This document shows positions 7,101 through 52,645 of a DNA stretch of 64,000 nt, piece after piece. The position numbers and the translations under genes were made by a program. The number at the start of each line of letters is the position of its first letter. The stretch's first letter is position 1. This stretch comes from Cherax quadricarinatus (taxonomy: Eukaryota; Arthropoda; Malacostraca; Decapoda; Parastacidae): contig NC_091355.1 of the NCBI RefSeq assembly GCF_038502225.1, forward strand, positions 17,948,148-18,012,147, read 5' to 3'. The notes under the pieces are model-generated. The model was not told the DNA's origin and ran no database searches. It saw only the letters and a list, made by a program, of their open reading frames with translations.

Positions 7101-7172
7101 CTACCTGTTTATAAATTCAAGTCTCTTCTCAAAGTTCACTTACTCACTCAAAACCAAATAAATACTGAATAA
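4144..7172 (+). pseudogene. Family A LINE ORF2: endonuclease and reverse transcriptase, one frameshift
   Basis: The first segment (4144-6774) has an EEP-type endonuclease: FNYNVRSLSKH near 4351, LTETWLKPD near 4440, GDFNINLL near 4767 and a TTDHYPTF motif near 4960. Reverse transcriptase follows: NNYRPISNL near 5860, CQFGFRPNKNTNEA near 5965, IDLRKAFDTVDHDLL near 6073, GVPQGSVLGPLL near 6243 and FADDT at 6337-6351. A frameshift between about 6670 and 6684 moves the thumb and C-terminal region to another frame, open to 7172. The enzyme nicks target DNA and primes cDNA synthesis from the nick. Apart from the indel all catalytic motifs look intact, so decay is modest. The real start may be the Met near 4222, just before the endonuclease. 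Confidence 0.85.
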
Positions 7173-11325: not shown

Positions 11326-11601
11326 CTAGCGATGGATATTGGGAAGCACTGCTATGGTAATAGAGTTGTCAATGAGTGGAATAAACTCACAAGTAACGTC
11401 ACTGAAGCTAAAACGTTGTGCAGTTATAAAAAATAAGTTAAACAAATACACGAGTGGGTGTGGGTGGGTGTGAGTTGGACCTGACTAGTTTGGGCCAGTA
11501 GGCTTACTGCAGTGTTCCTTCCATCTTGAGCGGTTGTTTTGGACCTGCCTGGCACTGGGCCAGTAGACCTGATGCAGTACTCTTTATTTCTTATGTTCTT
11601 A
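11325..11601 (+). mobile_element. Family B (CR1) LINE 3' end, heavily truncated
   Basis: It contains NRVVNEWNKLTS-type coding remains followed by GAGTGGGTGTGGGTGGGTGTG, GTTGGACCTGACTAG, GGGCCAGTAG and TTCTTATGTTCTT. The same series forms the C-terminus and trailer of the complete copy ending at 18461. The tail stops about 18 bp from the stop codon of the lectin gene on the other strand. Confidence 0.8.
11583..11588 (-). promoter_or_regulatory. Possible poly(A) signal AATAAA for the lectin gene
   Basis: AATAAA on the minus strand, 31 nt past the TAG at 11622-11620, inside the tail of the CR1 fragment. It is the first canonical signal after the stop. Whether it is used is unknown. Confidence 0.4.
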
Positions 11602-11619
11602 CGGTGGAGATTTAATGCT

Positions 11620-11824
11620 CTAAACGGTGACGCAGAGAGGGCTCTTCTGCAGGAGACAGTCCTCGTCAGTCATGTAGAAGTAGTGCTGGTAGGAGAGGGA
11701 CGCGCAGTAGCCCAGTTCGTTGTGCTCGGGAGCCTGACGATAGTGGTAGCAGGTAGCTCTGTTAGCAGCGCGCGTCGTCTGCGTTGCCGTAGTTAAGTTA
11801 CGTGTCTGGCACTCCTCGTATTGT
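11620..11824 (-). CDS. Lectin gene coding exon 8: CTLD C-terminus and stop
   Basis: 205 nt, entering in phase 2. The acceptor is AACCCCAACAG and the stop TAG at 11622-11620. It encodes QYEECQTRNLTT, NRATCYHYRQAPEHNE, GYCASLSYQHYF and MTDEDCLLQKSPLC. The last three cysteines fit CTLD positions C2, C3 and C4. An extra pair (EEC, ATC) may make an additional disulfide. Where other family members have EPN/QPD and WND, this protein has APE and MTDED. Confidence 0.9.
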
Positions 11825-14147
11825 CTGTTGGGGTTAAGTGTTGTTACTGCATTTCTAGTTCATTGGTAGATGAACATCGTTAGTAGGTGGAAACCTTGTT
11901 AAACAACGAAGGAGACTTTGCTTGCCAGAAATGCTCTGTACAACTATGATTTTTTTTACTCCAGCTATACAGCTGGAGTAAAAAAAAGCCAGCCCTATCT
12001 GAGGCATACTGTCACCACCCCAGGATGCAACCCACAACAGTCGACTAACACCCAGGTACCTAATTACTGCTTGGTGAACATGGGTAGCAGGTGGCAATAT
12101 AAACACAAATGCAGTATAATGTGATCCTTTATTGACTACGTTTCGCCCACACAGTGGGCTTTTTCAAGTCACAAACAGTTCTGTTTGTGACTTGAAAAAG
12201 CCCACTGTGTGGGCGAAACGTAGTCAATAAAGGATCACATTATACTGCATTTGTGTTTATATTGCCATTGTGTCGGTATTTTATACCATTTATTTCCATG
12301 GGTAGCAGGTGTAAGGAAACATTTCCAACGTTTCCACCCGGCCGGGATTCTTCAGGCACAACTAAATTTCAACCATTTCTGTATCATTCTGAAATAAATA
12401 TTATCTGAAAATTTACTGAAATAAATTATCATATTATTACTAGTTAGTGAGTGGAGAAGACCTTGTTAGTGGGTGGAGGAGAGCTGGTTAATGGGTGGCG
12501 GAGACCTGGTTAGTGGGTGGCTGAGACCTGGTTAGTGGGTGGAGGAGACCTGGTTAGTGGGTGGAGGAGACCTGGTTAGTGGGTGGAGGAGACCTGGTTA
12601 GTGGGTGGAGGAGACCTGGTTAGTGGGTGGAGGAGACCTGGTTAGTGGGTGGAGGAGACCTGGTTAGTGGGTGGAGGAGACCTGGTTAGTGGGTGGAGAT
12701 GACCTAGTTAGTGGGTGGAGGTGACCTAGTTAGTGGGTGGAGGTGACCTAGTTAGTGGGTGGAGGTGACCTAGTTAGTGGGTGGAGGTGACCTAGTTAGT
12801 GGGTGGAGGAGACCTTATTTTCGTCTCACTCGTAGTGAAGAACTCATTGGTAGGAGACATTGTGACTCACAGTGATGATCTTGTTAGTAGATTAAGGAAC
12901 TTTGTTAATGAATTAATGATCATAAAGAACCTCTTAGCGAGTGGAGAGATATTGGTAACTGATAGAATGAACCTTGATAATGTTCTAATTGCGATGATAT
13001 TTTTAATTAGTGGCACAGTAAACAATCCAACACCTTGACGGCTCACTAAGAAGATTTTATCAGTATAGCAGCAGAGTTAAGGGAGGAGCACTGCATCCGA
13101 CCTAGTAGCACAAGCTAGTCAGGTCCAAATCACACCCACCCACACCCACTCACGTATATATCCAACCTATTTTTAAAACTACACAGCGTCTTAGCTCTAT
13201 GACGGTACTCGGGAGTTTGGTCCACTCATCCACAACTCTGTTACCAAACCAGTGTTTTCCTATATACTTTCTGAATTTCAACTTTTCCAGTTTAAAGCCA
13301 TTGCTGAGACTCCTGTCTATGTTAGATATTTTTAGCACAATATTTACATTCCCTTTATTAATTCCTGTTTTCCATTTATACACCTCACTCATATCCCCCC
13401 TAAAGGGTTTCAAACACAATGCCAGCAGAAAAGCAAGGCTAACATCATGAATGAAACACTGTCAGGACTTTGGAGAAAAACCTAACACTGCTGACCTCGT
13501 ACGGGAATTTCTCTGAAGGGAAAACCAAGTTCTATGATGGCCCTGTAGGGACAATCTACTATTGTGATGGCCCTGTAGGGAAAACCTGGCATTATGATGG
13601 GCCAGTAGGAAAAAACCTACTAGGGAAAATGTACCATTGAGATGGCCCTGTAGGGAAAACTTAATTTTATGATGGCCCAGTATGGAAAAACCTAGCACTG
13701 TGATGGCCTAGTAGGGGAAACACCTAGTATTGTGATGGCCCTGTATGATAATCATGTAGGGGAAAATGTTTTAGTGTGCTAGTGCTGTAGGGAAAATGAA
13801 GCACTATAATGGCCATGTTGAGGAAAGTTAGCACTGTAATGCTCATTTAGGGAAAAATTAGCACTATGATGGCGCTCTAAGTTAAGTCAAGGGCTACCAT
13901 ACCTAGTTGCAAGAATCAACTCATATAAACTTACCTAACAGCCCAGTAAGGGGAACCTAACACCATGGGTACCTCATCTATCCATGTCCATCCATCTCTC
14001 TTCTCCATCTGTCGACCACCCACCCAGAAGTCCGTCGTCAGCTCTGTAATATCAAATATTATCCATAGTTCTTAATAGACAAAGCTTGATGTTAAGTAAA
14101 TGCAGAGTGATTTATAATCAATACAGTGCAATGTAAAATAAATATAT

Positions 14148-14212
<65 letters not shown>

Positions 14213-20200: not shown

Positions 20201-23200
20201 CAATAATATATAGCAAAAGCTATTTCGGGAACCACAGATCCTTAGTTTCGTGAGCTAATGCAAGTATAGTTGAGCCTCAGTATCAGAAATAATTTCAATC
20301 ATATGGGAAGAGCTAAACTCATAGGGACTACTCAGTGCCTGGAGGAATGAATGGAAATCAGGTTTGACCCACGGAAGGGGAAACCCGGTGCAGTTCACTT
20401 GGATAAGGAGCCTTTTTGTGGCATCAAGGAACCTCCCTTGAGGGGACCAGTATCAGAAAATAATGTTAATAAAATTACGACACAATATGAGAAGTTAATA
20501 CGGGTGGCGTAAGGCCAGAATTTCTAAAAAAAAATTCTAGTAACCTAATTACACATATATCGATTACCAATAATGTAAAACTTAAATATCAAAAGCTAAA
20601 ATGCAGGTAGTGTAAAGCCTGAATGGCACAAGCAACAGGGGATACTGACGGTTGTGCTGAAGATGTTGGATGACAGTGGAGAAGTGGCTGACGCTCTTGA
20701 AGGTGAGGAGGTCACCGTTGATCACCTTGCAGAAGGCCCGCGCCTCTCCCCAGCTCACCTGCATAAAAAAGACTTTGATCAACTTATTAACCCGGAGAGT
20801 TAGTGATTTCAAGGTAGCCCCGGAAAAAGCCAACGTACAGTGGATTAACATGCTAATACCAGTTACTGCTAAGAGAACAGGGCCATCATTGTCAAAAAAT
20901 TCACCAAAGCCTCAACTCTTCTATTAGAACCCAGGTTATTCTGGTATGATATAAATGAGCCATTATTCTTTGAAGGAGTTCTTTCCTGGTGTCTCCCTCA
21001 CCCTTTCTGTCCTCCAGTGTCGTAAGGATGATTTCCAATAACCTCTCCTCATAGGACATACCCCTTAGCTCCGAGACTAGTCTTGTTGAAATCCTTTGCA
21101 CTTTCTTTGATTTTTTTTGACATGCTTGACCAAGTGTGGGTTCCATACTGGTGCTGCATATTCCAATATGGACCTGACATATACGGTGTACAGTGTTTTG
21201 AATAACTCCTTACTTAGGTTTCAAAACGGAATTCATAGGTTTGCCAGGCGCCCATATCCTACTAGAGTTATTGTTGATGAGAGTCTCAAGAGATATGTCG
21301 GCATGGTACTCTCCCCAAGATCCATTTCCATGAATGAGGTTTGCAGTCTTTGGCCCCCTAGCATGTACTCCGTCTGCGATCTCCTTTGACCTCCAATCTT
21401 CATGATTTTGCACATGGTAGGGTTAAACTCCAGGAACCATTTGTTGGATTGGGTTTGCAGCCTATCCAGATCCCTTTGTAGCAATACCTTGTCATAATTC
21501 TCCACATTAGCTTCACATCGTCTGGAAACAGAGAAACCCCTGAATCTTTCTATTCTGCATATCATTCACATATACCAGAAACAGTACCGGCCCTAGGACT
21601 GACCCTTGTGGAAGCCCGCTCGTCACATGCGCCCACTTTAACACCTCGTCACGTACCATCACTCGTTTTCTTTCTGTCTGGTATTCCCTGACCCATCACA
21701 TTGCCTTTCCCGTTATTCGTGCCTGTTATTCCTTTTGCACTAATTTTTGGTGCGGAACTGCGTCCAAAGCCGCCTTACAGTCCAAGAAAATGCGCCTCCT
21801 CCTCCTCCTCCTCCTCCTCCTCCTCCTCCTCCTCCTCCTCCTCCTCCTCCTCTCTTTCACTCTCTCTCTCTCTCCTGTCTTACTTATTTCCCCTTCCCTG
21901 AAACCGTGTTGGTTATCGTGTATAAGCTCATTCTTTCTAGGAGCTCCACCAATCATGTCCTAATAAGCTTCACCATGACTCGGCATACATGATAGTGACA
22001 CTGATCTGTAGATTAATGTCTTCCATACCTCAGGTGGTTGCCCTATTATGATAGATGTGTTGATTGTTGTTAGAGGCACACACACTGCCTCAGCTCCCTC
22101 TCAGGACCCACGGAGAGATGTCCGATCCCACCGCCTTTGAGGTATCTTGCTCGTTTAGCAGTCATTTCACCTCCTCGGCTGTGTGTATTGTGTCCAGCAC
22201 TTGTGTACTTACCTAATTGTGGTTGCAGGGGTTAAGACTCAGCTCCTGGTGTATGTGTGTGTGTGTGGGGGAGGGTGGATGGGTGAATTTTGCTTCTGTT
22301 GGATAATGCAACTAAGGCAAAATGGGAAAGAACCTTGCCAACAGAGAAGACAGAGAGGCACTGATCTCCGACGACGGTGTACATATCAGGGCAGTCAGGG
22401 TGGCTGATGGTATTGTTGAGGTTGGCTACCAGGTCCTCTCCCAACAGCTCGCTTCTCCGCCAACTCTGTACTGTAGAAACAGGACATCACTTGTTAGATA
22501 CATTTCTTCTCTGTGACACAGTACATCACCTGCTGCGTCCTAACAGACCCTTTTAAAACAAACAAAATCAAAGAACTGGAGAATATACAAAGAACCTTCT
22601 ATCCCTACAAATTCAGTTAATAACGTAAATCGAGTAGATAAATGGTTTAATAAACTGAGAACTTGATAAATGAAAATCTTGTGCAACATTTGGGTATCTT
22701 CATGAAACCTTTCGCCAGCCAGTTACTTCTTCAGGTCATTGCAGAGGAAGGATGGACTTAACACAACGACTTCAAGCTGAGGGACTGATTGCCTCAGCGT
22801 CCTTCTCATCTTTTATCTTCCTCTGCGTTGGACTGAGAAGACAGTGGCTAGCGAAACGTTTCCTGAATAAAGATACTCAAATGTTGCACAAGCGTTTCAT
22901 TTACCTAAATTATTGCTAATGTCTGAAGTTCCTTGAACTGTTCTTCCTAGAAGGGAGGCTAGAAACACCTTTAAATTTTTGCCTGTAAAATCCTGGAAGG
23001 ATTGGTCCCAAATATGCACTCAGAAAATGCTGCCCGAAGATGAAGTAGCTCAACAGACGGTGCACAATACCTCCATTGGAAAGCCTAGGTGTAACAAGTA
23101 CACTAAGGAGATCATGACCTCGTAACTTCCTCCCAACATCACCAACAGACACCTATCTTCAAGAGGGAACTGTATAATTTCCTCCAAGTTATTTTCTGAT

Positions 23201-26200
23201 GAGCTGAGATACTGTACTAAAGATGGCCAATTGGTTGACTGGCTCATTATCCAGCAGGCCTTGTCTAGGAGAGTATCATAGCACCGGTGACGCACGCAAA
23301 AGTATTTAAGTAGCCATTAGCTCTGGGAAAAGCGAACTCGTCATACTAGAGCCATTTTTCTGCTTGAAGAAATCTCCATTAAATGAAAAAAGACGTTGGA
23401 GAAAACACAAAGCACTGTGATTTCAATAATTTTTATTTAAGATAATGGGATTTTTTCTTAATGTGCAGCCAGTACTTAAAACAGGTATGATAATACATTA
23501 TCAACTGGCACTTTGGGAAAAGGAGACCTCACATCGAAGCTCTTCATTTTCATTTACACCAAATTAAATTTTCTGAAATGATGAAATGAATGAAATGGGA
23601 GTCAAAAAATATAAAATAACGAGTGCAATTTATTTAATCACTTGGCAGGGATGAAAGGATCTCGCGTTGAGGTAAAGTTATGAGGCCACCTTTGGTTTTC
23701 CAGGCGAACTTTGATCGAATATCGAACTATGAACCGTTAAGTTTCATTCCAATTGTTCAGTCGGTTACTAAGTTATCCTGTTATCAGGCACTAATCACGT
23801 TCATAATTAGTTCTTTACCCAGCTCAGACCTCGGGAGTAGCGAGAGTGTCATGGGCAAGTTTATGCTCAGACCAAATCACTTCTTATTTGCAAATAACAT
23901 CACAGGTGTTTTCCTCGGTGTTGTCAATTTGCACTATTGCTAGAGCACCAAACGAAGATATTGCACTTGATGATAATTGCTTAATATTTAATAAAAAGTG
24001 GAATGTGTAATTTCTTGTGTTTTTTTGGTTCTCACCATTTTCTTTAAAAGACAGATTACTAAAAACGAATTTGCTAGGAAGAATGTGCAAAACGTGAAAT
24101 TCAAAATCAGGAATTTCATGTACTTACTGCTTTCCTAATGATTACGTGTAATTACCAAGGAATTGGAGGAACCGGCAGAAAATACTCAAACAGCAACAGG
24201 AAGAATCGTCTAAATTTTCTCCTGAAGTATGATTATTCTCATGAAGACTGAGCTCCCAGGGAGAGAGAGAAAGTAAGCAATACGCTGAGCTTATGGGTAA
24301 TAACCCACTTTCAACAGTTCAGAAATATCATGAATATTGTAGGTTGAACCAGAGAACCTTTTCTCAGACGATGTTTAACTAGTTAAATATCGCCTGTAGA
24401 GGGAAAGAATAATGGAAGCAGACTCGAACCATAACTCATGCAAATAGCAGGACTGATGCTTTGCCCACTCAGCCACAGAGCTTACAGTAGTGTCATTATA
24501 TAACCAGCAGTTATGTAAAATGGTTGTATCTTATTCCACAACCCCAGAAACTTTCATGGTACATCTGTTCTCATGCTCTACAAAGTCTCATTATCCATAA
24601 CAAAACTAGTAGCAAATAACGAATGTAAATAAATAAACAGAATAATAAATGGGGACTCTGCCTGTGGTTCATACAAATGGCAGACAGTGATGTAACAATA
24701 CAGCCACAGAGGTTACAATAAGATGATTTTAAACCAGCATTTCTCTGACAATGTTGAATCAGCAACACAAGCTGTGACCACTACCTGAGGCTGAAGGAGA
24801 CGGTTGCTACTGCTCTTGGTGCCATAAGACGTAGGGTATCACGAATACCGGAATGTAATCATCCTTCCCAACTATAGCGATGCGATAACCAGGTCCCCGG
24901 CACAGGTATATTAATAGTAACCGCAACTGTACATCACCGCTACTCCTTGGCAGCCAGTGATGTGTCATTATATGGCCCGTGTCAGTGCATTCTTCCTCGT
25001 AATATATTTTCATCATAAGGATTCAAGTGTTTCGTCTACGTTAATTTTTTCATAATGACTTTATACTCATTGAGAAGCGTTAACACCGTAATTAACATAC
25101 AGCGTATCGGGTCAGGTATGATACGAGGAAGGCAAGAGCAGCATATGCAACAATGGCAACATAAGCAAAACTGACAACATAAGAAACACAGGCAACATAA
25201 AAAATAGAAACAACACTGACAACATTAGCAATTTAAGCAACACTGGCAACATAATATAAGCAACACTGGCAACATAATATAAGCAGCACTGGCAACAAAC
25301 AATATAAGCAACGCTGACAACATAAGCAATATAAGCAACATTGGCAACATAAGCATTATAAGCAACACTGGCAACATAAACAATATAAGCAACACTGGCA
25401 ACATAAGCAGTATAAGCAACACTGCCAACATAAACAATATAAGCAACATTGGCAACAAACAATTTAAGCAATATTGGGAACAAACGATATAAGCAACGCT
25501 GGCAACATAAGTAGTATAAGCAACACTACCAATATAAACAATACAAGCAACATTGGCAACATAAACAATATAAGCAACAATGGTAACAATATAAGAAACA
25601 CTGGCAACATAAGCAATGTCAGCAACACTGGCAACATAAGCAGTATAAGCAACACTGGCAACATAGTGGAATCGTTAATGTGGTGGAATACATTCTACTA
25701 CATTAACACATCTTTAAGTGAGAATAATACGTATATTGTATAAGGAAAAATGTGGGGGGAAAAGTTTATTAACGATTGGATTTATGACATAATGATGGTG
25801 GTCGTATAAATCGGAGAATATTTGTTAGATAATGAGCGGCCAACGCCAATTATCTAATTACCTTGGCTGGCAAAATCCTTGTATCTAGAGCCCCCTTCAC
25901 TAGCTAAATATCAGCACCTTTTTCTAAAGAGGTAACTTACCAGGAGCTTCGTCGGCTGGCAGAACTATAGATGTGAAGGTCTGAACAGTGTTGTCCAGCA
26001 GCACCTGTGGAAGACTCGGTGTCAGCATCGTCAACATAGTACTACTGAATGCACTGCTGCTGAATTTTCACTCGAATCTTCTCAAAAAAATTAAACAAAA
26101 AAAACTTTCTTTTTTTTCGTTTTATTAATTTAATAGTTATGCTAAAATTAAAAAAAAAAAAATTTTTTTACTTTATTAATTGAATGGTTGTGTTATTTTT

Positions 26201-29200
26201 TAAGCTTTTAAAATATTTCTTTCAGACTAAAAGTAAAAAGTACCAATGTTGGATGGCGTGACAAATACTGAGAAAAAGTCATTTAGTACGGAGCAGATCT
26301 TGAAATACAGAGACGTTATTCTGTAAATTGACTTCATCAAGTCAGTACAAGGTGTAATGTACCATGACATTATGTACAGAAATATGAGAAGTAATAAGAG
26401 GAGAGGTTAGGTGTCAACAGTGAGCAACAGTGACACTTGTGCTTGTTGATAGGTATTACCTTGCAACACTTGATATATGAGAGGATTAGCAATACTGAAG
26501 GCCCGTTGAATCTGTTCTATGCTGTCAGAAGTCTCTTAAAAAGCCGCCTCCAAGCAGTCGCTTGATCATGTTGTCTTCATTAGTAAAATGTCCAGTCTAT
26601 GAGATGTTCGCTTTTTTCTCTTTTTACAAGAGTGTTCAAGATGTGGCATTTGTATGAACAGTTTTGAGTACTCTGGTAGGTAAACGTCTTTATGTTTCTC
26701 ATATTTTGACATTCTTTCGCTCCCCACACAGAATGTCATATATGTCTGCTTTAGCGATTTTTTTTTTTACCTTTGATCATGTTAATTCAAGAATGTTTTT
26801 TTCAAGGTTATACAAGTTAAGTTGTTGTTGTTCATTTGGATGGTAACAGGGAGGACTTCTTGCCAAACGTTTAAGTTTTGGACACCATTATTAATGTCGA
26901 TCTACAGCACAAAGTTTACTTCTTATGAGACATCGCAGATTTACTATAAGCAGCAAAAAGTTACCAAGTTTAGACATAACATCTTTACACATGTTACTGC
27001 TGATTAAACCGCCATTTCATTACACAAATTACCCGCGTGTAGAAGAGGGGAAACTAATAACGTTTCGTTCAGACTTGGATCATTGACAAGCCACACTGAT
27101 ATAAATACTCTGGAAAACGTACAAAGGAGGATGACAAAGATGATCCCATGTATCAGAAATCTTCTCTATGAGGATAGACTGAAGGCCCTGAATCTGCACT
27201 CTCTCGAAAGGCGTAGAATTAGGGGGGATATGATCAAGGTGTATAAATGGAAAACAGGAATAAATAAAGGGGATGTAAATAGTGTACTGAAAATTTCCAG
27301 CCAAGACAGGACTCGCAGTAATGGTTTCAAGTTGGAAAAATTCAGATTCAGGAAGGATATAGGAAAGTACTGGTTTGGAAATAGAGTTGTGGATGAGTGG
27401 AACAAGTTCCCGAGTACAGTTATTGAGGCTAAAACGTTGTGTAGTTTTAGAAATAGGTTAGATAAATACATGAGTGGGTGTGGGTGAGTGTGAGTTGGAC
27501 CTGACTAGCTTGTGCTGCTGGGTCTGGTACAGTGCTCCATCCTTGAGTGGGGATGACCAGACAGGGTGGGTCATTGGTCTAATCCGGGGGGATGGGACAT
27601 GGACCTGCTCCGCATGGGTCAGTAGGCCTGTTGCAGTGTTCCTTCTTTCTTATGTTCTTATGTTCTTAAAAAGAGACGAAGGCGAGAATATATATATAAG
27701 GGGGCGGGGGAAGAAGAGAATGGTGATGGTAGAGCATAAAATTAAACTTTTTTACCTTTAATAACACCCCATGATGACAACAGTAGTGAAATCTTCAGTC
27801 AGCGATGTACTTACTAACTTACCCCTGGAGTTATTTACAGCAGGAAGCTTTGCAAATGTTTTCCCATATAAAGAATTCTGGCTGTGATTTATTAGCGACA
27901 TCATTCTTATTCCACCCAGGCTCTACAACATGGAACTCTTTTGCAACCAATTCTATACGATATATGGGTAAAAATACCCTTACCTCCCAAAAAATGACGA
28001 TCACACAATCAAATACTGGTGTATTTATTGTTTGATATCTTCTGCGCACTTAGAAACTACAACGCAGTCTCCTACACCTAAGAAAAACAGAAAGCAATCA
28101 ACAATCCGATGCGTGGAGCGCGTGGGAAACTGCTCCTTCCAACTGACCTTACACAACCAGCATTATCATGTAGAAAACCATTTGTGAATTACCAAGATCA
28201 AAAACTTAAAATCACTTCTATACTGAATCAGGCATTTACAAAACCCATTACGGAGAGTACGAAGAACTCTACATCTCTGAATCAACACGTAAGCTGCACA
28301 GCAGAATCCATGAGCACAAATTCGCAAGTGAAACCCACAAGTTGAACAGGGAAGGAGGGCTATAAAAAGGTTATAACAGGAGGGTTATAACAATAGTGGT
28401 TATAACAGAAGTGGTTTTAACAGGAGTGGTTATAACAGAAGTGGTTATACTGGGAGGGTTATAACAGGATTGTTTATAGCAACTGGGTTATAACAGGAGT
28501 GTTTATAGCAACAGGGTTATAACAGGAGTGTTTATAGCAACAGGGTTATAACAGGAGTGTTTATAGCAACAGGGTTATAACAGGAGGGTTATAACAGGAG
28601 GGTTGTAACAGAAGTAGTTATAACAGGAGGGCTATTACAGAAGTGTTTATAACTTCTCCAGTGGCACATTGTGGGTAGCCGAGGAGGTGGTGAGCGACAG
28701 ATGTGTGGCAAGTGTGGTGCAAGAGGTAGGTGTAAGGCAAGTTTGAGGCATGTATACTCACCTAAATGTGGCTGCAAGGGTCGAGATTCAGCTCCTGGCT
28801 CCCTATACATATGAGGCAGATACGGATCAAGCGTGGGGCTGCAGTGAGTCAGGTGAGGTGCAGGTACAGATATGAAGCAGGTGTGCTAAAGGTGTATACA
28901 TGGTGTGCAGAAGGGTTGAAGCAGGTATGGGGCAGGTATGAGAGAGATTATTTACCTTACACATTTTTGGGTCAACGTCTCCCTGGCAAGGTGGATCAGT
29001 CTGCTGGCAGTAGTTAAGTAGTCTCATACATTCCATCTGACTGCCCCTACGGCAGTTCACTTCACCCTTCTCGCATGTGTAATGAGATTTAAACACCTGC
29101 AACACATAACATTGGAAATAAGAACATAAGAATGGAGGAACAATGTCCATACAAGGCAGGTCCTTGTCAAAGCCACCACTACATACCATACTATTTAATT

Positions 29201-32200: not shown

Positions 32201-34765
32201 GTACCACAACCGCTTTCCCTGTACCCTTAGTCTCACATCTTCAACACTAGTTTCTGTATCAGAAACTATTATTGTATTTCCCCCCTATCCTTTTGACAAT
32301 TTTCAAATCCTTAAAGTTATCCAGATCACTGTCAGTTATAAGTTTAAACACCCTGATCAACCACTAGCTACCCTCTCTACTAACACAACTAGAGCACTGT
32401 CTCCCTTCCAGGAAAGATGAATACCAACCCAAGCAAACCTACCACTACTGTTAAAAAATAGTGTCCCATATGTCAATGTACTATACTTTGGGTTCCTCGC
32501 AGTGCTTACCCAATCGACTGTTCATTCCAAGTGTCCTTTAAGGCCACTTGTTTTCCACCCTTATTCTTGGCAGAATACTTCGTATTACAGGTATACAACC
32601 TTTCATTAATCTTTGTAACAACTGGCCTAAATTTAGCAAATCTTCACATCTTGCCCTCCTTATATATTTGCCTCCTTTGCTCAGGCATGCATTGGTATCA
32701 TTTCTACACTCAGACAAAATATTGGTCATGTGGCCTACGAAGTACCCTAGTCCTGCACTAGGCAGGTAAACAGTAATATTATACTTAGGGTAGAGTGATG
32801 CAGCAGTCGTGCAGGGGAGGGGTACACTGAAGCAGTAGTCATACAGGGAAGGGGTACACTGCAGCAGCAGTCATACAGGGGAGGGGTAGAGTGATGCAGC
32901 AGTCATACAGGGAAGGGATACACTGCAGCAGCAGTCATACAGGTGAGGGGTACACTGAAGCAGCATTCATACAGGGGAAAGGGTAGAGTGATGCAGCAGT
33001 CATGCAGGGGAGGGGTACACTGCAGCAGCAGTCATACAGGGGAGGGGTACACTGAAGAAGCATACAGGGGAGGGATACACTTCAGCAACAGTCATACATA
33101 GGAGGAATACACTAAAGCAGCAGTCATACAGGGCAGGGATACACTGCAGTAGCAGTCATACAGGGAAGGGATACACTGCAGCAGCAGTCATGCAATGGAG
33201 GAATAAACTGAAGCAGCAGTCATACAGAGCAGGGATACACTGCAATAGCAGTCATACAGAGGAGGGGAACACTGAAGCAGCAGTCATACTGGGGAGGGAT
33301 ACACTGATGCAGCAGTCATACAAAGGAGGAATACACTGAAGCAGCAGTCATTCAGGGGGAGGGATACACTGCAGCATCAGTCATACAGGGAAGGAGTACA
33401 CTGAAGCATCAGTCATACAGGGAAAGGGGTACAGTGGTGCAGCAGTCATACTGGAGTTGGTAAATACTTACGTAGCAGAGGTCGGGGTCTTCGTCTTCTC
33501 CCCCAGCGCAGTCATTGTCTCCGTCACACACATAACGAAGCTTGACACACTTGGCCTCCGAGGAGCACGCGATCTCGTCCTCCCTCAATGTGCAGTCCAA
33601 CCCAGCTGCAGGAAATAAACCAGAGGCATGGTGAGGGAGGCAGGTGCAGTGCATGTGAAACAGTGCGAGAATACGTAAATGACTGTGGGGGGAACAGGGT
33701 GGGTGTATGTGAATTACCACCGATGTTCACCAATATTTTGAAGCAGTTCTATAGCATGAACCACTGATAATGCGAAAGATGACTGGATGTGCACAGTGTA
33801 TAAGGGCTCGTAGCTATGGTCCTGGAGTACCTTGATGCCTGCAAGAGGTGCAGAGGTCAGAGACAAGTGCACTTTGGTAGCAACAAATACATACACTGAA
33901 ATTAAAACTTATATCTGACAGTCAATGACTAGGTACTTATTTGCATTCATTAGCGTAGAAACTACAGTAGGTATGCATTCGAGATGTTCCATTGCCTTTG
34001 ATGTATCCAGCTCAGAAATTTTTTTCCTCTTCCTCTATTGTATTCATGTTGTCCAATACTTGTTGGTGTACTCTTTACCCTTGACTCTTCGATATTTCTC
34101 CAGTTTCCACTGAGAACACCTCTTTAAATCAACCATTTAACATCGCGTAGATTTTTTTTTTTTTTTGAGTGTGTGAACTTCCCTTCTTTTTCAAACTAAT
34201 TACCTGGCCATTGACAATCTTCACTTGGTCTGACAGTGGAACAGTTGTCGCTTAAACTTGACATTTTCTGCTAAGTCGCTTTAAAATTGTTGCTCTTCCT
34301 CGATTATTCGTTTCTGGCTCATCTGATCACTTTTCTGTTCCCTTTTGTCCTTCCCTTTCTATTGTTTTCTCACACTCTTGTGCTCTTCTTTCTTTTCTCT
34401 ACTTTATTAATTGATCCAGTGGATCTCTTCATTTTTGCCATATGTCCATATTCTAGGAAGGAAGTTCTTCTCTGCCTCTTCTATTTTTCCAGCTTGATTC
34501 TTCATTTCTTTTCGAGTTTCCTTTTTCCGCTTCACCGTATTGAGGAATTCTTTCATCCCATCGAAGTTCCTCTTCTGTAGTTTACTTTCATATCGTCCTA
34601 GCGCCGTTCTTCCCTAAAATTTTTAATTCCACAAAGTATTCGAAATTCACTGTAATATGTTCGCTAACACCCAGGGGCTCAATTATTCTATTTAACCTAT
34701 GTGTAATTGTGGCAAACATCACATGTAATATTTCCTTCTTTTTAGCTCTCGCTCTCTCTTGTCTA

Positions 34766-34822
<57 letters not shown>

Positions 34823-37800: not shown

Positions 37801-39712
37801 CCTAGGATAACTAAATCTGTATAATACACTAAACTGGGAAATAGTACAGCAAAATTGAGTATTCAGGGCTGTCTGGATAGTTTGATGTTGTGGTCGAAGG
37901 TATTGAGATGAGTTTCAAGGTAGACAAGTGCAACGTAGTGCAGAACGTTCGGTAACAAGTTTACCAAACAAGAGAAGACAAGGACCTTGAAGTAATCATA
38001 AGCAATGAACTCAAAAGTACCAAGCAATGCCTAACCGCGAGCAGCAAAGGAATCCGAATACAAGGCTTCATAACTAGAGATTTCAAACACAAAGCATCCG
38101 ACACTGTATAGGGTCTCAATAATGCACTTAAATATGCCGTCCAATTTTTGTCTACATATTACATAAAAGAGAAAAGTATATTAAAGAGGATGCAGAGAAG
38201 TACAACCAAACTCGTACCATCACTCAGAAACAAATCTTATGAAGAACGACTCGAAGCTCTCGGACTTTTATTCTCTTAGGAAATGGAGACTACGAGGAAA
38301 TCTCATCTAAACTTGTAAGACACATTCAACATGAGAAACTGTACTTGATGCTCTGAATGAGTCCATAAATCGAATCAGTGCAATAAAACTGCGAGTCAGA
38401 CGATGCAACATCAACATATGCAATATCTTTTGCAAACAGAATTATAGCAGACTGAAATAAACTACCAGCTAATTTTTTAAGTGTAAAAATAATGCAGCTA
38501 TACAAGTAACAAATAGAAAGTTACTCAGCAAAGTACAGGATTCACTAGAAACATCGTGTCCTAGAGGGATACCAGATGCTGTCAGTCAAGGTTGATGGGT
38601 CATCAACACGTGTTTTATTTGTTTTATATCTTAAAATGATCAGTAAGGTATAGGACATGGTGAGAGAGGATAAGAGATATATATTGCCAAGCATCTTCCA
38701 TATTTTAAATAGTCGATAATTCCAAACTAAATCCTGATTAGACCCAAGCTGACAGTCATGTACGTGTATATACAGCAGATAGAGAACTCTGAAGTCTACA
38801 GATTCCTGATGTCTTTTTAGCTATTACATCAGAAAGACCGGTTCACAAAGAAGCAACCAAGTCAGTGATTGAAGTACCGGTAGACAGTGAGCTGCGATAT
38901 CCATACCAGAACTGGTGGTAACCTGAAGTAGAACCAATGTTCTGAGTGGCAGTGGATTAACAAATGTAGGTTAAAACAGAAACAGTACTAATTTAGCAGA
39001 GGTAGTTGTAGCCCACGTTATCCATTCAGTTTCATCTCTACTGGAACTTTATGCCATTTTGTCAGGATAGTATGGCATATTATCACTCATTTTCTTCCCG
39101 GCAGTTGCCGGAGGGAGTGAAGGGTGGAGGGAGAGCCGTCTGTATTTCTAGCTTTGATACTCGCACCTAGACTCTACACGATAGTCCTAAATCTAAGTAG
39201 AAGAAGGTGGTAGTTCTCAGAAAATAGTCTCGGCGTGAACTGTAGAGTTCTCTGCTATTTGCCTTTTCATATACTCCTATGTACGACCACAGTTACAGAG
39301 AAAGAGAGAGAGAGAGGCAGGCACCACAAACCACCACCACTACCACCACCACAGGCACAACAAACCACGATCACCACAGGCACCTTAAACCACCGCCACC
39401 AACTCAGCAACAGAAGCAGTATTCACCATCACAATGGTGAAGAAGCGGGTAATAACCACCATCCTTGCAACAGAGACAAGTACTCACCAGCACCATAACA
39501 GAGACAGGTACTCAGCACCACTCCAGCAACAGAAGCATTTATATCCCTCACCACAGCAACAGCAGCAAGTACTCACCAGCACAGCAACAGTACCAAGTGC
39601 TCACCACCACAAAAACAGAAGCATATGCTCACCACAGCAACGGTAGCAGATACTCACCAACATAAGAGCCAGGGAACATCAGGAGGAGCAGAAAGGAGGT
39701 AGCTGAAGTCAT
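11620..39712 (-). CDS. Secreted LDLa-LDLa-like-C-type lectin protein, 8 coding exons, 317 aa
   Basis: Joined coding segments on the minus strand: 39712-39658, 33605-33472, 29096-28956, 26004-25941, 22470-22334, 20758-20650, 14043-13935 and 11824-11620 (954 nt). All junctions are GT-AG and the phases agree throughout, giving one open frame to TAG. Order: hydrophobic signal peptide (residues 1-18), canonical LDL-receptor class A domain (about 20-62), divergent six-cysteine LDLa-like domain (about 71-109), linker, then a C-type lectin domain with the N-terminal cysteine pair of the long form (about 155-317). Two N-glycosylation sequons are visible (NNT in exon 5, NLT in exon 8). LDLa-CTLD proteins are known from crustaceans as immune lectins, so secretion into haemolymph is a reasonable inference. 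EPN/QPD and WND are absent, so calcium-dependent sugar binding is doubtful. Further phase-compatible exons could have been missed, especially in introns 1 and 2. Confidence 0.85.
11950..11987. repeat. Perfect 17-bp inverted repeat with ATAC loop
   Basis: T8-ACTCCAGCT, ATAC, AGCTGGAGT-A8. In intron 7, 37 bp or more from the repeat at 12008. Confidence 0.85.
12008..12360. mobile_element. Dispersed short repeat (SINE-like), split by a foldback element
   Basis: AGTCGACTAACACCCAGGTACC ... GGTGAACATGG-CAGCAGGTG ... GGAAACA also occurs at 56790-56890 without interruption. Here it is broken at 12094-12296 by the foldback element. The right part ends in CCCGGCCGGGATT, similar to the T-arm side of tRNA-derived repeats. 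Confidence 0.6.
12094..12296 (+). mobile_element. Foldback retro-element (type a): 87-bp perfect inverted repeat, 15-bp TSD
   Basis: Arms 12092-12178 and 12181-12267 are exactly complementary with a 2-nt spacer. A short single-copy end follows (GTGTCGGTATTTTATACCATT). The insert is bracketed by CATGGGTAGCAGGTG at 12079-12093 and 12297-12311, a 15-bp target-site duplication. The uninterrupted relative at 56850 serves as an empty site. Each arm holds a small hairpin, GCCCAC-TGT-GTGGGC, followed by GAAACG. There is no coding capacity. A long TSD argues for target-primed retrotransposition rather than cut-and-paste. Confidence 0.85.
12435..12815. repeat. 22-bp minisatellite in intron 7
   Basis: Unit GAGACCTGGTTAGTGGGTGGAG, about 17 copies. 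Central copies are nearly identical and a GTGACCTAG variant takes over on the right. Worn copies (GAACCTCTTAGCGAGTGGAGA) continue to about 12990. Confidence 0.92.
13082..13408 (-). mobile_element. Family B (CR1) LINE 3' fragment, minus strand
   Basis: Minus-strand translation gives RGDMSEVYKWKTGINKGNVN, SNGFKLEKLKFRKYIGKHWF and NRVVDEWTKLPSTVIE. These are nearly the same as the end of the complete copy (18020-18250), followed by the shared trailer. Truncated at the 5' end near 13408. Confidence 0.85.
13520..13885. repeat. Degenerate minisatellite next to exon 7, unit about 33 bp
   Basis: TGATGGCCCTGTAGGGAAAACCTAGCACTG-like units, about ten copies, quite diverged. The end of exon 7 (13935-13968, GCCCAGTAAGGGGAACCTAACACCATGG) has the same pattern. 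Confidence 0.75.
13935..14043 (-). CDS. Lectin gene coding exon 7: CTLD central strands
   Basis: 109 nt, phase 1 to 2. The acceptor is TTGATATTACAG and the donor TAG/GTAAGT. It encodes TTDFWVGGRQ, GWTWIDEVPM and GSPYWAV, the FWVGG (WIGL-position) and W-W segments of a CTLD. Too short and interrupted to appear as a long ORF, it was found by looking for the missing middle of the domain. The intron 7 minisatellite next to it resembles the end of this exon. Confidence 0.9.
14152..14208. repeat. (TA)n microsatellite
   Basis: About 28 TA units. Confidence 0.95.
14450..15345 (+). pseudogene. Family B LINE ORF1: coiled coil plus SGNH-hydrolase (esterase) domain, frameshifted
   Basis: The N-terminus holds a short Leu/Glu-rich coiled coil (VGELKEVVLLLQEEIRRLK) and a Ser/Val-rich linker. 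The esterase follows: VVGDSQVRYIDRAF (block I, Ser), PGAGVGD (block II), AGGNDIG (block III) and YARDGVHLSGAG (block V Asp and His). Blocks III and V lie in another frame: the shift falls between about 14989 and 15000. ORF1 esterases of CR1 elements are thought to act on lipids or membranes during transposition, but their role is not settled. All four catalytic blocks are visible despite the indel. Confidence 0.85.
15360..18289 (+). pseudogene. Family B LINE ORF2: endonuclease and reverse transcriptase, one stop and one frameshift
   Basis: Endonuclease motifs: TNSRSVRNK near 15525, AITETWLN near 15601, GGGVAMYV near 15703, GDFNYRQIDW near 15930 and ESDHKSLSF near 16130. The frame is broken by one TAA at 16443-16445, then continues in the same frame through KSPGPD near 16834, NYRPINLTS near 17009 and QHGFTKGRS near 17115 to 17189. 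After a 1-nt-type shift (about 17165-17180) it goes on with VYMDFSKAFDRVP near 17213, GVPQGSVLG near 17392, FADDT at 17480 and the C-terminal RMTKLIPCIRNLPYEDRLR and RFRKDIGKYWFGNRVVDEW blocks, stopping at 18289. Only two lesions in 2.9 kb indicate a fairly young copy. Confidence 0.9.
18466..18860 (-). pseudogene. Fragment of an invertebrate retroelement-associated protein
   Basis: A 130-codon frame on the minus strand reads KYRDISQQYQFVPVGSETLG, AWGKNATRFLKELSSRLIDT, DPRAATFMLQRLSVAIQRGN and ACCILGSCPASEE. The pattern KY-D-Y-FVP-ET-GVWG-A-F---GR--EPR---FL-QR-S-AIQRGN is one I associate with the C-terminal part of proteins encoded by invertebrate retroelements. I cannot name the family with certainty. 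It begins right next to the CR1 tail at 18461. The opposite-strand match to a GGGAAAATGTTAAACCCC-type short repeat (18778-18830) lies in its upstream part. Confidence 0.5.
19125..19375 (+). mobile_element. Foldback element relative (type a), diverged
   Basis: Contains CTGAAGAAGCCTAC-TCT-GTAGGC-AAAAC, then AATAAAGATTCCTAACTGTTGCACATGTGTCTTATC and the terminal CATGTCAGTATTGTATAGCATT. The same order is found at 22830-22900, 31700-31803 and, reversed, at 44447-44600. Confidence 0.65.
20305..20455. repeat. Dispersed GGGAAGCGCTAAACCC-type repeat
   Basis: GGGAAGAGCTAAACTCATAGGGACTA ... GGCATCAAGGAACCTCCCTTGAGGGG. Relatives at 29744-29835 and 45030-45115, with shorter traces at 18778 and 57195. Probably SINE-derived. 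Confidence 0.5.
20650..20758 (-). CDS. Lectin gene coding exon 6: CTLD helices
   Basis: 109 nt, phase 0 to 1. The acceptor is TTTTTTATGCAG and the donor ACC/GTCAGT. It encodes VSWGEARAFCKVINGDLLTF followed by a helix with HFSTVIQHLQHN. WGEAR-FC-GDLL is the helix-1/helix-2 signature of C-type lectin domains, and its cysteine pairs with the last cysteine of exon 8. Confidence 0.9.
20945..22205 (-). pseudogene. Decayed family C LINE reverse transcriptase, with internal (CCT)n expansion
   Basis: Reading leftwards on the minus strand: SKAVGSDISPWVLR (near 22110), NQHGFREGE (near 21925), then a GAG/AGG run, FLDCKAALDAVPHQK (near 21770), FNPTMCKIMKIGGQRRSQTE (near 21420), YTVYVRSILEYAAPVW-type sequence (near 21160) and VSELRGMSYEERL with LTTLEDRK (near 21040). 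The order is that of a LINE reverse transcriptase and thumb. Many stops and shifts make it non-functional. It fills much of lectin intron 5. Confidence 0.8.
21789..21850. repeat. (CCT)n microsatellite inside the LINE reverse transcriptase
   Basis: About 20 CCT/AGG units, then a (CT)n run to about 21882. The tract replaces the stretch between the HGFR and FLDCKAALD motifs and stays open in several frames, giving spurious poly-Ser, poly-Pro and poly-Arg ORFs. Confidence 0.9.
22205..22267 (-). mobile_element. Family C LINE terminal stub in (GT)n DNA
   Basis: GTACTTACCTAATTGTGGTTGCAGGGGTTAAGACTCAGCTCCTGG is the extreme 3' end of family C (compare 10317 and 59278), followed by a (GT)n run. Confidence 0.65.
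22334..22470 (-). CDS. Lectin gene coding exon 5: start of the C-type lectin domain
   Basis: 137 nt, phase 1 to 0. The acceptor is CCTGTTTCTACAG. It encodes a polar stretch with an NNT glycosylation site, then HPDCPDMYTVVGDQCLSVFS, the opening beta strands and N-terminal cysteine pair of a long-form CTLD. The donor, AAG/GTTCTT, is unusually weak. The join to exon 6 (FSVGK-VSWGEARAFC) is exactly what a CTLD requires, so the boundary is probably right. Confidence 0.85.
22680..22905 (+). mobile_element. Foldback element (type a) in lectin intron 4, diverged arms
   Basis: The left arm TTGTGCAACATTTGGGTATCTTCATGAAACC-TTTCG...CTTCTTCAGGTC (22678-22740) is complementary to the right arm GACTGAGAAGACAGTGGCTAGCGAAACG...GATACTCAAATGTTGCACAAG (22831-22893), with a 90-bp centre. 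The same core hairpin and GAAACG motif occur as in the copy at 12094. Confidence 0.7.
22906..24400. other. Intron 4: no gene or repeat recognised
   Basis: AT-rich, short ORFs only. None shows splice-flanked coding signal or known domain. Confidence 0.35.
24415..24490 (-). repeat. tRNA-derived repeat (SINE head), minus strand
   Basis: The minus strand reads CTCTGTGGCTGAGTGGGCAA (box A like) and, about 45 nt on, TATGGTTCGAGTCTGC (box B like). A more worn second copy with GGTTCATACAAATGGCAGAC and CAGCCACAGAGGTTAC lies at 24660-24718. No intact cloverleaf, so not called as a tRNA gene. Confidence 0.55.
25135..25672. repeat. 27-bp minisatellite in intron 4
   Basis: Unit AAGCAACACTGGCAACATAAACAATAT and variants, about 18 copies. 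The 27-bp length keeps long open frames on both strands (Asn/Ile/Ser-rich on plus, Leu/Val-rich on minus), all of which I treat as artefacts. Confidence 0.88.
25941..26004 (-). CDS. Lectin gene coding exon 4: linker
   Basis: 64 nt, phase 0 to 1. The acceptor is GTCTTCCACAG and the donor CTG/GTAAGT. It encodes 21 residues (VLLDNT, QTFTSIVLPADEAP) without cysteine, a spacer between the LDLa modules and the lectin domain. Support comes from two strong splice sites and exact phase fit with both neighbours, not from homology. Confidence 0.7.
26010..27020. other. Intron 3, right part: no gene seen
   Basis: AT-rich with poly(A)/poly(T) runs near 26085-26170. No supported coding region. Confidence 0.35.
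27025..27097. repeat. Half arm of foldback element type b
   Basis: AATTACCCGCGTGTAGAAGAGGGGAAACTAATAACGTTTCGTTCAGACTTGGATCATTGACAAG matches one arm of the element at 35825-36010. It is joined directly to the truncated CR1 that follows. Confidence 0.6.
27097..27672 (+). mobile_element. 5'-truncated family B (CR1) LINE with an open terminal frame
   Basis: An open frame to about 27487 encodes INTLENVQRRMTKMIPCIRN, YEDRLKALNLHSLERRRIRG and FRFRKDIGKYWFGNRVVDEW, colinear with 17895-18280 of the full copy. The trailer follows, then TTCTTATGTTCTTATGTTCTTA (two and a half 8-bp tail units). No lesion in the retained frame suggests recent insertion. Confidence 0.9.
28231..28366 (+). pseudogene. GIY-YIG endonuclease fragment, Penelope-like element
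   Basis: Plus-strand translation from 28231 reads GIYKTHYGEYEELYISESTR then KLHSRIHEHKFASETHK and a stop. GIY, 9-10 residues on LYI-E, and then R-RI-EHK form the core of the GIY-YIG nuclease (Tyr, Tyr, Arg and His positions) as found C-terminal to the reverse transcriptase of Penelope-like elements. No reverse transcriptase is recognisable upstream, so this is a remnant within lectin intron 3. Confidence 0.7.
28370..28655. repeat. 29-bp minisatellite (GGGTTATAACAGGAGTGTTTATAGCAACA)
   Basis: Three to four exact 29-bp copies in the centre, with 16-bp half units (GGTTATAACAGAAGT) on both sides. Confidence 0.85.
28751..28803 (-). mobile_element. Family C LINE terminal stub
   Basis: ATACTCACCTAAATGTGGCTGCAAGGGTCGAGATTCAGCTCCTGGC, the diverged 3' end of family C. 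Confidence 0.6.
28956..29096 (-). CDS. Lectin gene coding exon 3: divergent LDLa-like six-cysteine domain
   Basis: 141 nt, phase 0 to 0. The acceptor is TGTGTTGCAG and the donor AAG/GTAAAT. It encodes 47 residues with six cysteines (HYTCEKGEVNC, MECMRLLNYC, PPCQGDVDPKMCK). The spacing of the last three (C-x6-C-x8-C) is close to LDLa (C-x5-C-x8-C), but the final Asp/Glu cage is incomplete, so calcium binding may be lost. It could instead be another small disulfide module. Confidence 0.82.
29108..29166 (-). mobile_element. Scrap of family B (CR1) tail
   Basis: TAAGAACATAAGAATGGAGGAACAATG...GGCAGGTCC is the complement of the CR1 tail and end of trailer. It lies just upstream of the exon 3 acceptor. 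Confidence 0.5.
29170..31480. other. Intron 2: GGGAA-GCGTTAAACCC repeat at 29744-29835, otherwise unassigned
   Basis: Apart from that repeat I see no gene. A possible LTR-like stretch with GAACGATGGGGCCCCATCATCAA and an AATAAAGG signal lies at 29850-30210, but no matching second copy or coding region supports it. Confidence 0.3.
31490..31700 (-). mobile_element. tRNA-derived SINE, minus strand
   Basis: The minus strand shares GAGATTC-TTCGTAAAAACTTGCA, ATATACCTAGTTGGA-AATCTTA, GTAGCTAGCTG, GGGAGTTTTGCGACTC and a box-B-like GAGTTCAGTCCCCGATC with the SINE at 46840-47105, in the same order. Confidence 0.6.
31695..31805 (+). mobile_element. Foldback element relative (type a), right arm only
   Basis: CTGAAGAAACTTGTTGAGTAGATGAAACG, then AATAAAGATACCCAAGTGTTGCAC and TGTCAGTATTGTATACCAT: core, middle and terminal motifs of the family. 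Confidence 0.65.
31806..32780. other. Intron 2: no gene recognised
   Basis: Short ORFs on both strands lack domains or convincing splice sites. Confidence 0.35.
32790..33455. repeat. 32-bp minisatellite adjoining the exon 2 splice donor
   Basis: Unit CAGCAGTCATACAGGGGAGGGGTACACTGAAG, about 20 copies, starting about 17 bp past the donor at 33471-33466. Confidence 0.9.
33472..33605 (-). CDS. Lectin gene coding exon 2: LDL-receptor class A domain
   Basis: 134 nt, entering in phase 1 and leaving in phase 0. The acceptor is TTTCCTGCAG and the donor TAC/GTAAGT. It encodes a full LDLa module with six cysteines and the calcium-binding acidic cluster: LDCTLREDE, ACSSEAKC, RYVCDGDNDC and GGEDEDPDLC. 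LDLa modules bind calcium through this cluster and mediate protein or lipid contacts. This is the clearest single domain of the gene. A 32-bp minisatellite begins about 17 bp past the donor. Confidence 0.92.
33610..34760. other. Intron 1, left part: no gene seen
   Basis: Pyrimidine-rich and AT-rich DNA. No repeat identified. Confidence 0.35.
34766..34818. repeat. (CT)n microsatellite
   Basis: About 24 CT units with two interruptions. Confidence 0.92.
35070..35150. repeat. Tandem perfect palindromes, 31-bp period
   Basis: The 28-bp palindrome GATCATTTGATTAA/TTAATCAAATGATC occurs at 35070-35097 and 35101-35128, and half of it from 35132. Confidence 0.85.
35353..35374. repeat. 22-bp perfect palindrome
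   Basis: CACCATGAGTA/TACTCATGGTG without loop. Confidence 0.8.
35745..36190. repeat. Degenerate CACCACAGCAACAGAGACAGG minisatellite in intron 1
   Basis: Same unit type as 39325-39657 (ACCACCACAGCAACAGAGACAGGTACTCAC), more worn, and split by the foldback element at 35825-36010. Confidence 0.65.
35825..36010 (-). mobile_element. Foldback retro-element (type b): 72-bp inverted repeat, 13-bp TSD
   Basis: Arms 35863-35934 and 35938-36009 match in 71 of 72 positions with a 3-nt spacer. GAAGGTACTACCT stands at 35812-35824 and 36011-36023. On the minus strand the order is the same as in type a: two inverted arms, then GTCACGGTATTGTACC and a T-rich end. Each arm has GGTCC-AAGTC-GGACC followed by GAAACG. 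No coding capacity. Confidence 0.85.
36340..36570 (+). pseudogene. C-terminal part of an SGNH-esterase-type LINE ORF1
   Basis: The frame reads FLPRYDTVPTFSKVTGLNQR, YIEPWDDFDSKRVLFNHDGL and YLNNVGISILV. This resembles the end of ORF1 esterases of CR1-like LINEs (PRxD, then a DPWDxF segment, then DGLHLN-G). The catalytic His of the DGxH block is Tyr here. The following LINE remains (36890-38500) may be its ORF2. Confidence 0.55.
36575..36645 (-). mobile_element. 3' end scrap of family E LINE
   Basis: ATTACCTGGAGTTTACCTGGAGAGAGTTT, GGGGTCAACGCCCC and CGGCCCGGTC are the complement of the tail near 55300-55400. Confidence 0.65.
36890..38500 (+). pseudogene. Strongly decayed LINE ORF2
   Basis: Successive frames show KFERRVAQIKGNPEEFFKYV (36950), FKVDKCNVVQNV (37915), DKDLEVIISNELKSTKQCL (37980) and RMQRSTTKLVPSLRNKSYEE with RLEALGL (38190-38270). 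These are the pre-RT linker, post-catalytic and C-terminal blocks of a CR1-like ORF2. Dozens of stops and shifts. An old copy in lectin intron 1. Confidence 0.7.
38500..39320. other. Intron 1: no gene seen
   Basis: No domain or repeat recognised apart from a short GA run at 39298-39315. Confidence 0.35.
39325..39657. repeat. Minisatellite at the exon 1 splice donor, about 30-bp unit
   Basis: CACCACAGCAACAGAGACAAGTACTCACC-like units. On the gene strand each unit carries GGTGAGTA or a close variant, and the unit nearest exon 1 contains the donor itself. Confidence 0.7.
39658..39712 (-). CDS. Lectin gene coding exon 1: signal peptide
   Basis: The ATG at 39712-39710 sits in a good context (ACCACCATGA). 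It opens a 19-residue leader with core SFLLLLMFPG and ends TTG at the donor GTGAGT (39657-39652), phase 1. Joined to exon 2 it reads SYVA-GLDC, a plausible cleavage region. The frame stays open upstream (another Met about 25 codons before), but the shorter start gives a classical signal peptide with the better context. TATAAAA lies 135 bp upstream. Confidence 0.8.
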
Positions 39713-39846
39713 GGTGGTCAGTAAAGCACTGGTAGAGGTAGTGAGGGACCACACTGTAGCTGGTATACCCATACACCCCATCACGTGTACAGGAAGCAGG
39801 GAGTAGCCAGCCTCAGCCTCGCTTCCCTTAGTCCTTCGTGCAACAG

Positions 39847-39853
39847 TTTTATA
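39847..39853 (-). promoter_or_regulatory. TATA box of the lectin gene
   Basis: TATAAAA on the minus strand, 135 bp upstream of the chosen ATG. A start site 25-30 bp downstream would leave a 5' UTR of roughly 105-110 nt. A CACGTG E-box lies between it and the ATG (around 39782). Assigned by position and motif only. Confidence 0.45.
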
Positions 39854-52495: not shown

Positions 52496-52496
52496 T

Positions 52497-52645
<149 letters not shown>

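What the first reader, a model, noticed from the sequence alone, without database searches (positions are those of the whole stretch)
11620..39712. Complete eight-exon LDLa-C-type lectin gene hidden among repeats
Every exon is 55-205 nt, so no single ORF reveals the gene. Eight segments with GT-AG borders join in matching phases to 954 nt, 317 codons plus stop, with signal peptide, LDLa, LDLa-like and a CTLD complete from first to last cysteine. Chance agreement of seven junction phases plus domain order is very unlikely. Crustacean lectins with LDLa modules are known. A gene with two such modules before one long-form CTLD may be a less described architecture.
Basis: partly seen in the sequence, partly recalled or inferred. 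Interest (0 to 1): 0.85.

Follow-up and report, generated by a model that had tools for sequence, protein, structure and literature searches.

The report
Ordinary crayfish LDLa C-type lectin gene
The eight scattered pieces do join into one real crayfish gene for a probably secreted lectin-like protein, and close relatives of it are already predicted in other crayfish, lobsters and crabs, so it is a correct but ordinary find.

Summary
On the minus strand, eight segments (39712 down to 11620) with GT-AG borders join in phase to 954 nt, 317 codons plus stop. The product matches a Procambarus clarkii protein at 87% identity over 96% of its length (E 2e-190) and Homarus, Panulirus, Portunus, Petrolisthes and Eriocheir proteins at 72-81%. 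All seven junctions lie in continuous alignment with these six, and the seven form one clade with one member per species.

The layout is not new: the six cysteines are kept in 53 of 65 family rows, including a 311-aa Penaeus japonicus protein that may be the published QAP lectin MjGCTL (PMC5379193). Most likely function, inferred: a secreted pattern-recognition lectin or opsonin. A LINE protein in the window is 91% identical, over 55% of its length, to one from Cherax quadricarinatus, which suggests a Cherax source.

The parts
39658..39712 (-). Exon 1, 55 nt: start codon and hydrophobic N-terminus (signal peptide), donor in phase 1
   Evidence: candidate first exons; orthologue starts; no tblastn hit
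33472..33605 (-). Exon 2, 134 nt: LDLa module with the acidic calcium-ligand pattern
   Evidence: Pfam PF00057 E 2e-5; 49 of 54 proteins at E 0.001, best 7.7e-26; column counts
28956..29096 (-). Exon 3, 141 nt: six-cysteine module, weakly LDLa-like, without the LDLa calcium-ligand pattern
   Evidence: 40 of 54 proteins at E 0.001, best 4.2e-26
25941..26004 (-). Exon 4, 64 nt: linker
   Evidence: 11-15 of 21 residues identical to six orthologues; tblastn weak, 3 of 54 at E 0.001, best 5.8e-5, no better than low-complexity noise
22334..22470 (-). Exon 5, 137 nt: linker (helical in the orthologue's model) and start of the CTLD (C158, C169)
   Evidence: 53 of 54 at E 0.001, best 3.4e-23; model
20650..20758 (-). 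Exon 6, 109 nt: CTLD core (C187)
   Evidence: 54 of 54 at E 0.001, best 3.4e-17
13935..14043 (-). Exon 7, 109 nt: CTLD core into the long loop
   Evidence: 54 of 54 at E 0.001, best 4.2e-18
11620..11824 (-). Exon 8, 205 nt: long loop, QAP motif, last CTLD cysteines, stop codon
   Evidence: 54 of 54 at E 0.001, best 2.2e-37
39847..39853 (-). TATA-like box upstream of exon 1 (consensus match only)
11583..11588 (-). AATAAA, polyadenylation-like, with 31 nt between it and the stop codon, inside a copy of a dispersed repeat

Best explanation
It is an intact eight-exon gene, orthologue of one gene per species in six other reptant decapods, in a family laid out as signal peptide, LDLa, six-cysteine module, QAP-type C-type lectin domain. 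Inferred mechanism: the protein is secreted (about 34 kDa and pI 4.9 if cut before residue 20, a site I assumed; no other strongly hydrophobic 19-residue stretch). The LDLa holds calcium and acts as a rigid ligand-binding or spacing module. The CTLD binds microbial or haemocyte surface ligands through a non-classical QAP site, so that the protein serves as a soluble pattern-recognition lectin or opsonin. Shown here: gene structure, homology, domains, predicted fold of the P. clarkii orthologue. Inferred: secretion, calcium binding, ligand, immune role.
Against: No transcript, expression or binding data for this gene. Identity to the shrimp proteins nearest to published ones is only 36-48% (P0049, P0044, P0008). 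Positions that hold the classical calcium/sugar ligands are mostly replaced (numbering recalled). PMC5379193 describes LvCTLD, close to MjGCTL, as calcium-independent and technically not a lectin, so sugar binding cannot be assumed. The orthologues of highest identity carry no functional name.
Confidence: 0.6

Rival explanations
1. The protein is a CTLD protein that is not a lectin: the QAP site does not bind sugar, and the protein works through protein or lipoprotein contacts (for instance with yolk or haemolymph proteins) by its LDLa and CTLD surfaces.
For: Positions of the classical site are replaced: Q/A/P for E/P/N; G in 51 of 65 rows two before C290; T or S in 60 of 65 and D in 64 of 65 at 302-303 (correspondence recalled). 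PMC5379193 calls LvCTLD calcium-independent. A reference title seen reports an LDLR-bearing shrimp lectin as a receptor for a viral protein and vitellogenin (abstract not read). One orthologue per species among the rows found and 72-87% identity would fit a housekeeping role.
Against: MjGCTL, with the same motif, is reported to bind sugars and bacteria in a calcium-dependent way. No direct test here.
Confidence: 0.35
2. The joined exons are a pseudogene or a fortuitous chain of exons from different genes.
For: The gene is spread over 28 kb among LINE and tandem repeats; exon 1 has no homology hit of its own and exon 4 only a weak one.
Against: No stop or frameshift, GT-AG borders throughout, exon order and continuity equal to six orthologues, 87% identity to P. 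clarkii. No second copy of an exon seen in the window.
Confidence: 0.02
3. The true start lies upstream: in-frame ATGs at 39781 and 39772 would add 23 or 20 residues before the stated start.
For: The frame is open upstream and both ATGs are in frame; the candidate from 39772 also met my first-exon criteria. The Petrolisthes model P0005 has an N-terminal extension of similar composition.
Against: The ATG at 39712 follows ACCACC and gives a short signal peptide like that of P. clarkii. Five of the six orthologue models start at about the same place.
Confidence: 0.15

Closest known systems
Procambarus clarkii uncharacterized protein, 319 aa (P0001), and its Homarus, Panulirus, Portunus, Petrolisthes and Eriocheir orthologues (P0002-P0006)
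   Same: Full length, same modules and cysteines, QAP motif; 87% and 72-81% identity
   Different: Substitutions; signal peptide length; a glycine-rich tail in the two brachyuran crabs among the six; an N-terminal extension in Petrolisthes
MjGCTL, gill C-type lectin of Marsupenaeus (Penaeus) japonicus, 311 aa (PMC5379193)
   Same: Signal peptide, LDLa, CTLD with QAP motif, similar length. P0008 is a P. japonicus protein of the same 311 aa; its 244 of 311 identity to P. vannamei P0060 is near the 77% that the paper gives for MjGCTL and LvCTLD
   Different: 48% identity to P0008. That P0008 is MjGCTL was not verified: the paper predicts 5 N-glycosylation sites and I count 4 sequons in P0008. The passages read mention one LDLa and not the six-cysteine module, which P0008 has
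Penaeus merguiensis C-type lectin with LDL receptor domain (P0044) and P. japonicus C-type lectin 2 (P0049)
   Same: LDLa followed by a QAP-type CTLD
   Different: 36-38% identity; the six-cysteine module is absent, with a threonine/proline-rich linker in its place

Membership tests
C-type lectin-like domain (CTLD) superfamily | CTLD fold and Lectin_C profile match | tested here: met
C-type lectin-like domain (CTLD) superfamily | Long form: extra N-terminal cysteine pair plus the four core cysteines (definition recalled) | tested here: met
   C158, C169, C187, C290, C306, C314 in 64-65 of 65 rows; the pairing itself was not tested
Classical calcium-dependent C-type lectin (EPN or QPD with WND) | EPN/QPD and WND ligand motifs | tested here: not met
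   QAP at 280-282 and T-D at 302-303 instead; correspondence to the EPN and WND positions rests on recalled mannose-binding protein numbering
LDL receptor class A module, exon 2 | Six cysteines with the acidic calcium-ligand pattern; Pfam match | tested here: met
   PF00057 25.1 bits over a cut-off of 24.1; six cysteines, D56 and E57 in 65 of 65, D46 in 59 and D50 in 61 of 65 rows
   No PF00057 match in 8 of 8 module pieces at E 10; one LDLa stretch only in the whole protein
   hhalign score 18.1 to the exon-2 module, reached by 1 of 200 shuffles that keep the cysteines and 0 of 200 full shuffles; probability 29-37%. In a profile search of solved structures the best LRP2 stretch runs through both modules (profile 22-106, E 6e-5); of its 36 stretches one other passes position 79
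Decapod QAP, LDLa-bearing C-type lectins (MjGCTL kind) | Signal peptide, LDLa, CTLD with QAP | tested here: met
   definition from PMC5379193; signal peptide judged by hydropathy only
Decapod QAP, LDLa-bearing C-type lectins (MjGCTL kind) | Calcium-dependent binding and agglutination | not testable with these tools
   needs purified protein

The most novel reading that the evidence does not exclude
The exon-3 module is a separate, unnamed six-cysteine domain kept by most members of a family seen so far in decapods (four of the six cysteines in two krill proteins). The reptant orthologue, with its replaced calcium/sugar site, has a conserved role other than glycan recognition, carried by this module and the CTLD together.
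Probability: 0.2. Interest if true: 0.4.

Novelty: new member of a known kind. Interest (0 to 1): 0.17.

Why it matters
It supplies a crayfish orthologue, with exon map, of a decapod lectin family studied, in the papers I saw, mainly in shrimps. It also adds two points. First, the QAP motif is not limited to shrimps: PMC5379193 wrote in 2017 that all reported ones were from shrimps, and it is present in predicted proteins of crayfish, lobsters and crabs. Second, 53 of 65 family rows carry a six-cysteine module that Pfam did not name in the 8 pieces tested.

Tried and rejected
Second copies or paralogues in the window: tblastn of 54 family proteins found these exons and, at E 0.001, only 4 further rows in low-complexity sequence. 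Non-coding RNA: no Rfam match at gathering level. Genome-wide copy number and neighbouring paralogues could not be examined, because the genome search ('own') did not complete.

Fold search of the exon-3 module alone gave nothing usable, and no conclusion is drawn from that. Profile searches of solved structures with A3 modelled the whole family rather than the module. A wider profile search (51 proteins at E 0.001 among 2096 candidates) showed, among named sources, only decapods and the krill Meganyctiphanes norvegica; word-based picking of candidates limits this. Papers on LvLdlrCTL, FmLdlr and LvCTLD were met only as reference titles or mentions, MnCTLDcp and LdlrLec only as mentions in PMC5379193; none was read. 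PMC11240081, PMC8151143, PMC5437397 and PMC11602452 were searched for passages only and added nothing but references.

My notebook gives the upstream ATGs as 39782/39773; the right places are 39781/39772.

Full report
Check of the observation. The minus strand holds eight segments at the stated place. Every intron starts GT and ends AG, and the segments join in phase to 954 nt that encode 317 residues and a stop. Introns are 1575-6606 nt and hold tandem repeats and, in intron 6, a LINE.

More than chance. The joined protein finds P. clarkii P0001 at 87% identity over 96% (E 2.0e-190), Homarus P0002 at 81%, Panulirus P0003 at 77%, Portunus P0004 at 74%, Petrolisthes P0005 at 73% and Eriocheir P0006 at 72% (54 proteins at E 0.001 or better among 366 candidates). 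Aligned with these six, exons 2-8 show no inserted columns and every junction is continuous; exon 1 shows 14 inserted columns, from signal peptides of differing length. Identical residues to P. clarkii per exon are 10/18, 40/44, 39/47, 15/21, 41/45, 33/36, 31/35 and 60/67. In tblastn of 54 proteins, hits at E 0.001 number 0, 49, 40, 3, 53, 54, 54 and 54 for exons 1 to 8. Against the reading: the best hit on exon 4 (5.8e-5) is no better than noise in the low-complexity stretch near 46 kb (4.2e-5). So exons 1 and 4 stand on the whole-protein alignment, not on hits of their own. Reversed proteins reach 4.9e-9 in that low-complexity stretch, but only 0.037 on an exon. The first exon is one of three distinct donor sites in 30,395 upstream bases that meet simple criteria.

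The second module. Exon 3 encodes six cysteines spaced 6-7-6-6-8. All six are kept in 53 of 65 rows. Of the 12 others, P0043, P0044, P0046, P0048, P0049, P0051 and P0053 have none, P0041 has 1, P0050 and P0064 have 5 each, and the two krill proteins P0065 and P0067 have 4 each. Pfam LDLa matches 0 of 8 pieces. Profile comparison with the neighbouring LDLa scores 18.1 against a mean of 10.3 for shuffles that keep the cysteines, reached by 1 of 200. A profile of the family aligns one stretch of LRP2 across both modules. My reading is a degenerate LDLa without the usual calcium-ligand pattern, or a distinct module; this is not settled.

Family and orthology. In a tree of 65 proteins the window protein pairs with P. 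clarkii (100/97) inside a clade of seven with one member per species (100/100). Other clades hold paralogues from the same species. 'One per species' holds for the rows found, not for genomes searched. Contig lengths in the hit tables coincide for orthologue and paralogues in Homarus, Panulirus, Portunus and Eriocheir, which suggests linkage there; for the three P. clarkii rows they differ. This is inference from lengths only.

Function. PMC5379193 (passages and Discussion read) reports that MjGCTL, a QAP and LDLa-bearing lectin of kuruma shrimp, agglutinates bacteria with calcium and promotes haemocyte encapsulation, and that all QAP proteins reported then came from shrimps and had an LDLa. 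The same paper describes the near relative LvCTLD as calcium-independent. PMC9028835 (two passages) cites an LDLa-bearing L. vannamei lectin as possibly helping a viral infection. PMC9021376 (passages) reports two LDLa-bearing lectins among 25 in Portunus. I favour a secreted pattern-recognition role (about 0.6), with a non-lectin, protein-binding role as the main rival (0.35). That the gene is real and belongs to this family I hold at 0.93 or more.

Novelty. Eight searches of open papers listed papers on known LDLa lectins and, in the titles and abstract starts shown, none that names this orthologue. Searches showed only part of their hits (20 of 45, 15 of 28, 10 of 12), and subscription journals are not held. 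The verdict is a new member of a known kind.

Source organism. A LINE protein in the window is 91% identical over 55% to a jockey-type polymerase annotated in Cherax quadricarinatus (P0086). With 87% identity of the lectin to Procambarus, a Cherax species is likely, but no record names it.

Noticed in passing
window 11500-11602, minus strand: A dispersed repeat begins about 18 nt past the stop codon; other copies lie at 18461 and 27669 (minus) and 53279 (plus). In this copy it supplies an AATAAA, so the gene may use a repeat-derived polyadenylation signal.
   Followed up: partly
window 49770-52559, minus strand: A 930-aa LINE frame without a stop (endonuclease and reverse transcriptase), 91% identical over 55% to a Cherax quadricarinatus jockey-type protein.
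   Followed up: partly
window 4135-7172 and 14432-18289, plus strand: Two further LINE elements spread over more than one reading frame; the second lies in intron 6 of the lectin gene, opposite in direction.
   Followed up: partly
window 39712-39781, minus strand: In-frame ATGs at 39781 and 39772, upstream of the chosen start, with no stop between; the Petrolisthes model has an extension of similar composition.
   Followed up: partly
window, about 35860-36010: A long inverted repeat with arms of some 70 bases and almost no spacer, seen by eye.
   Followed up: no
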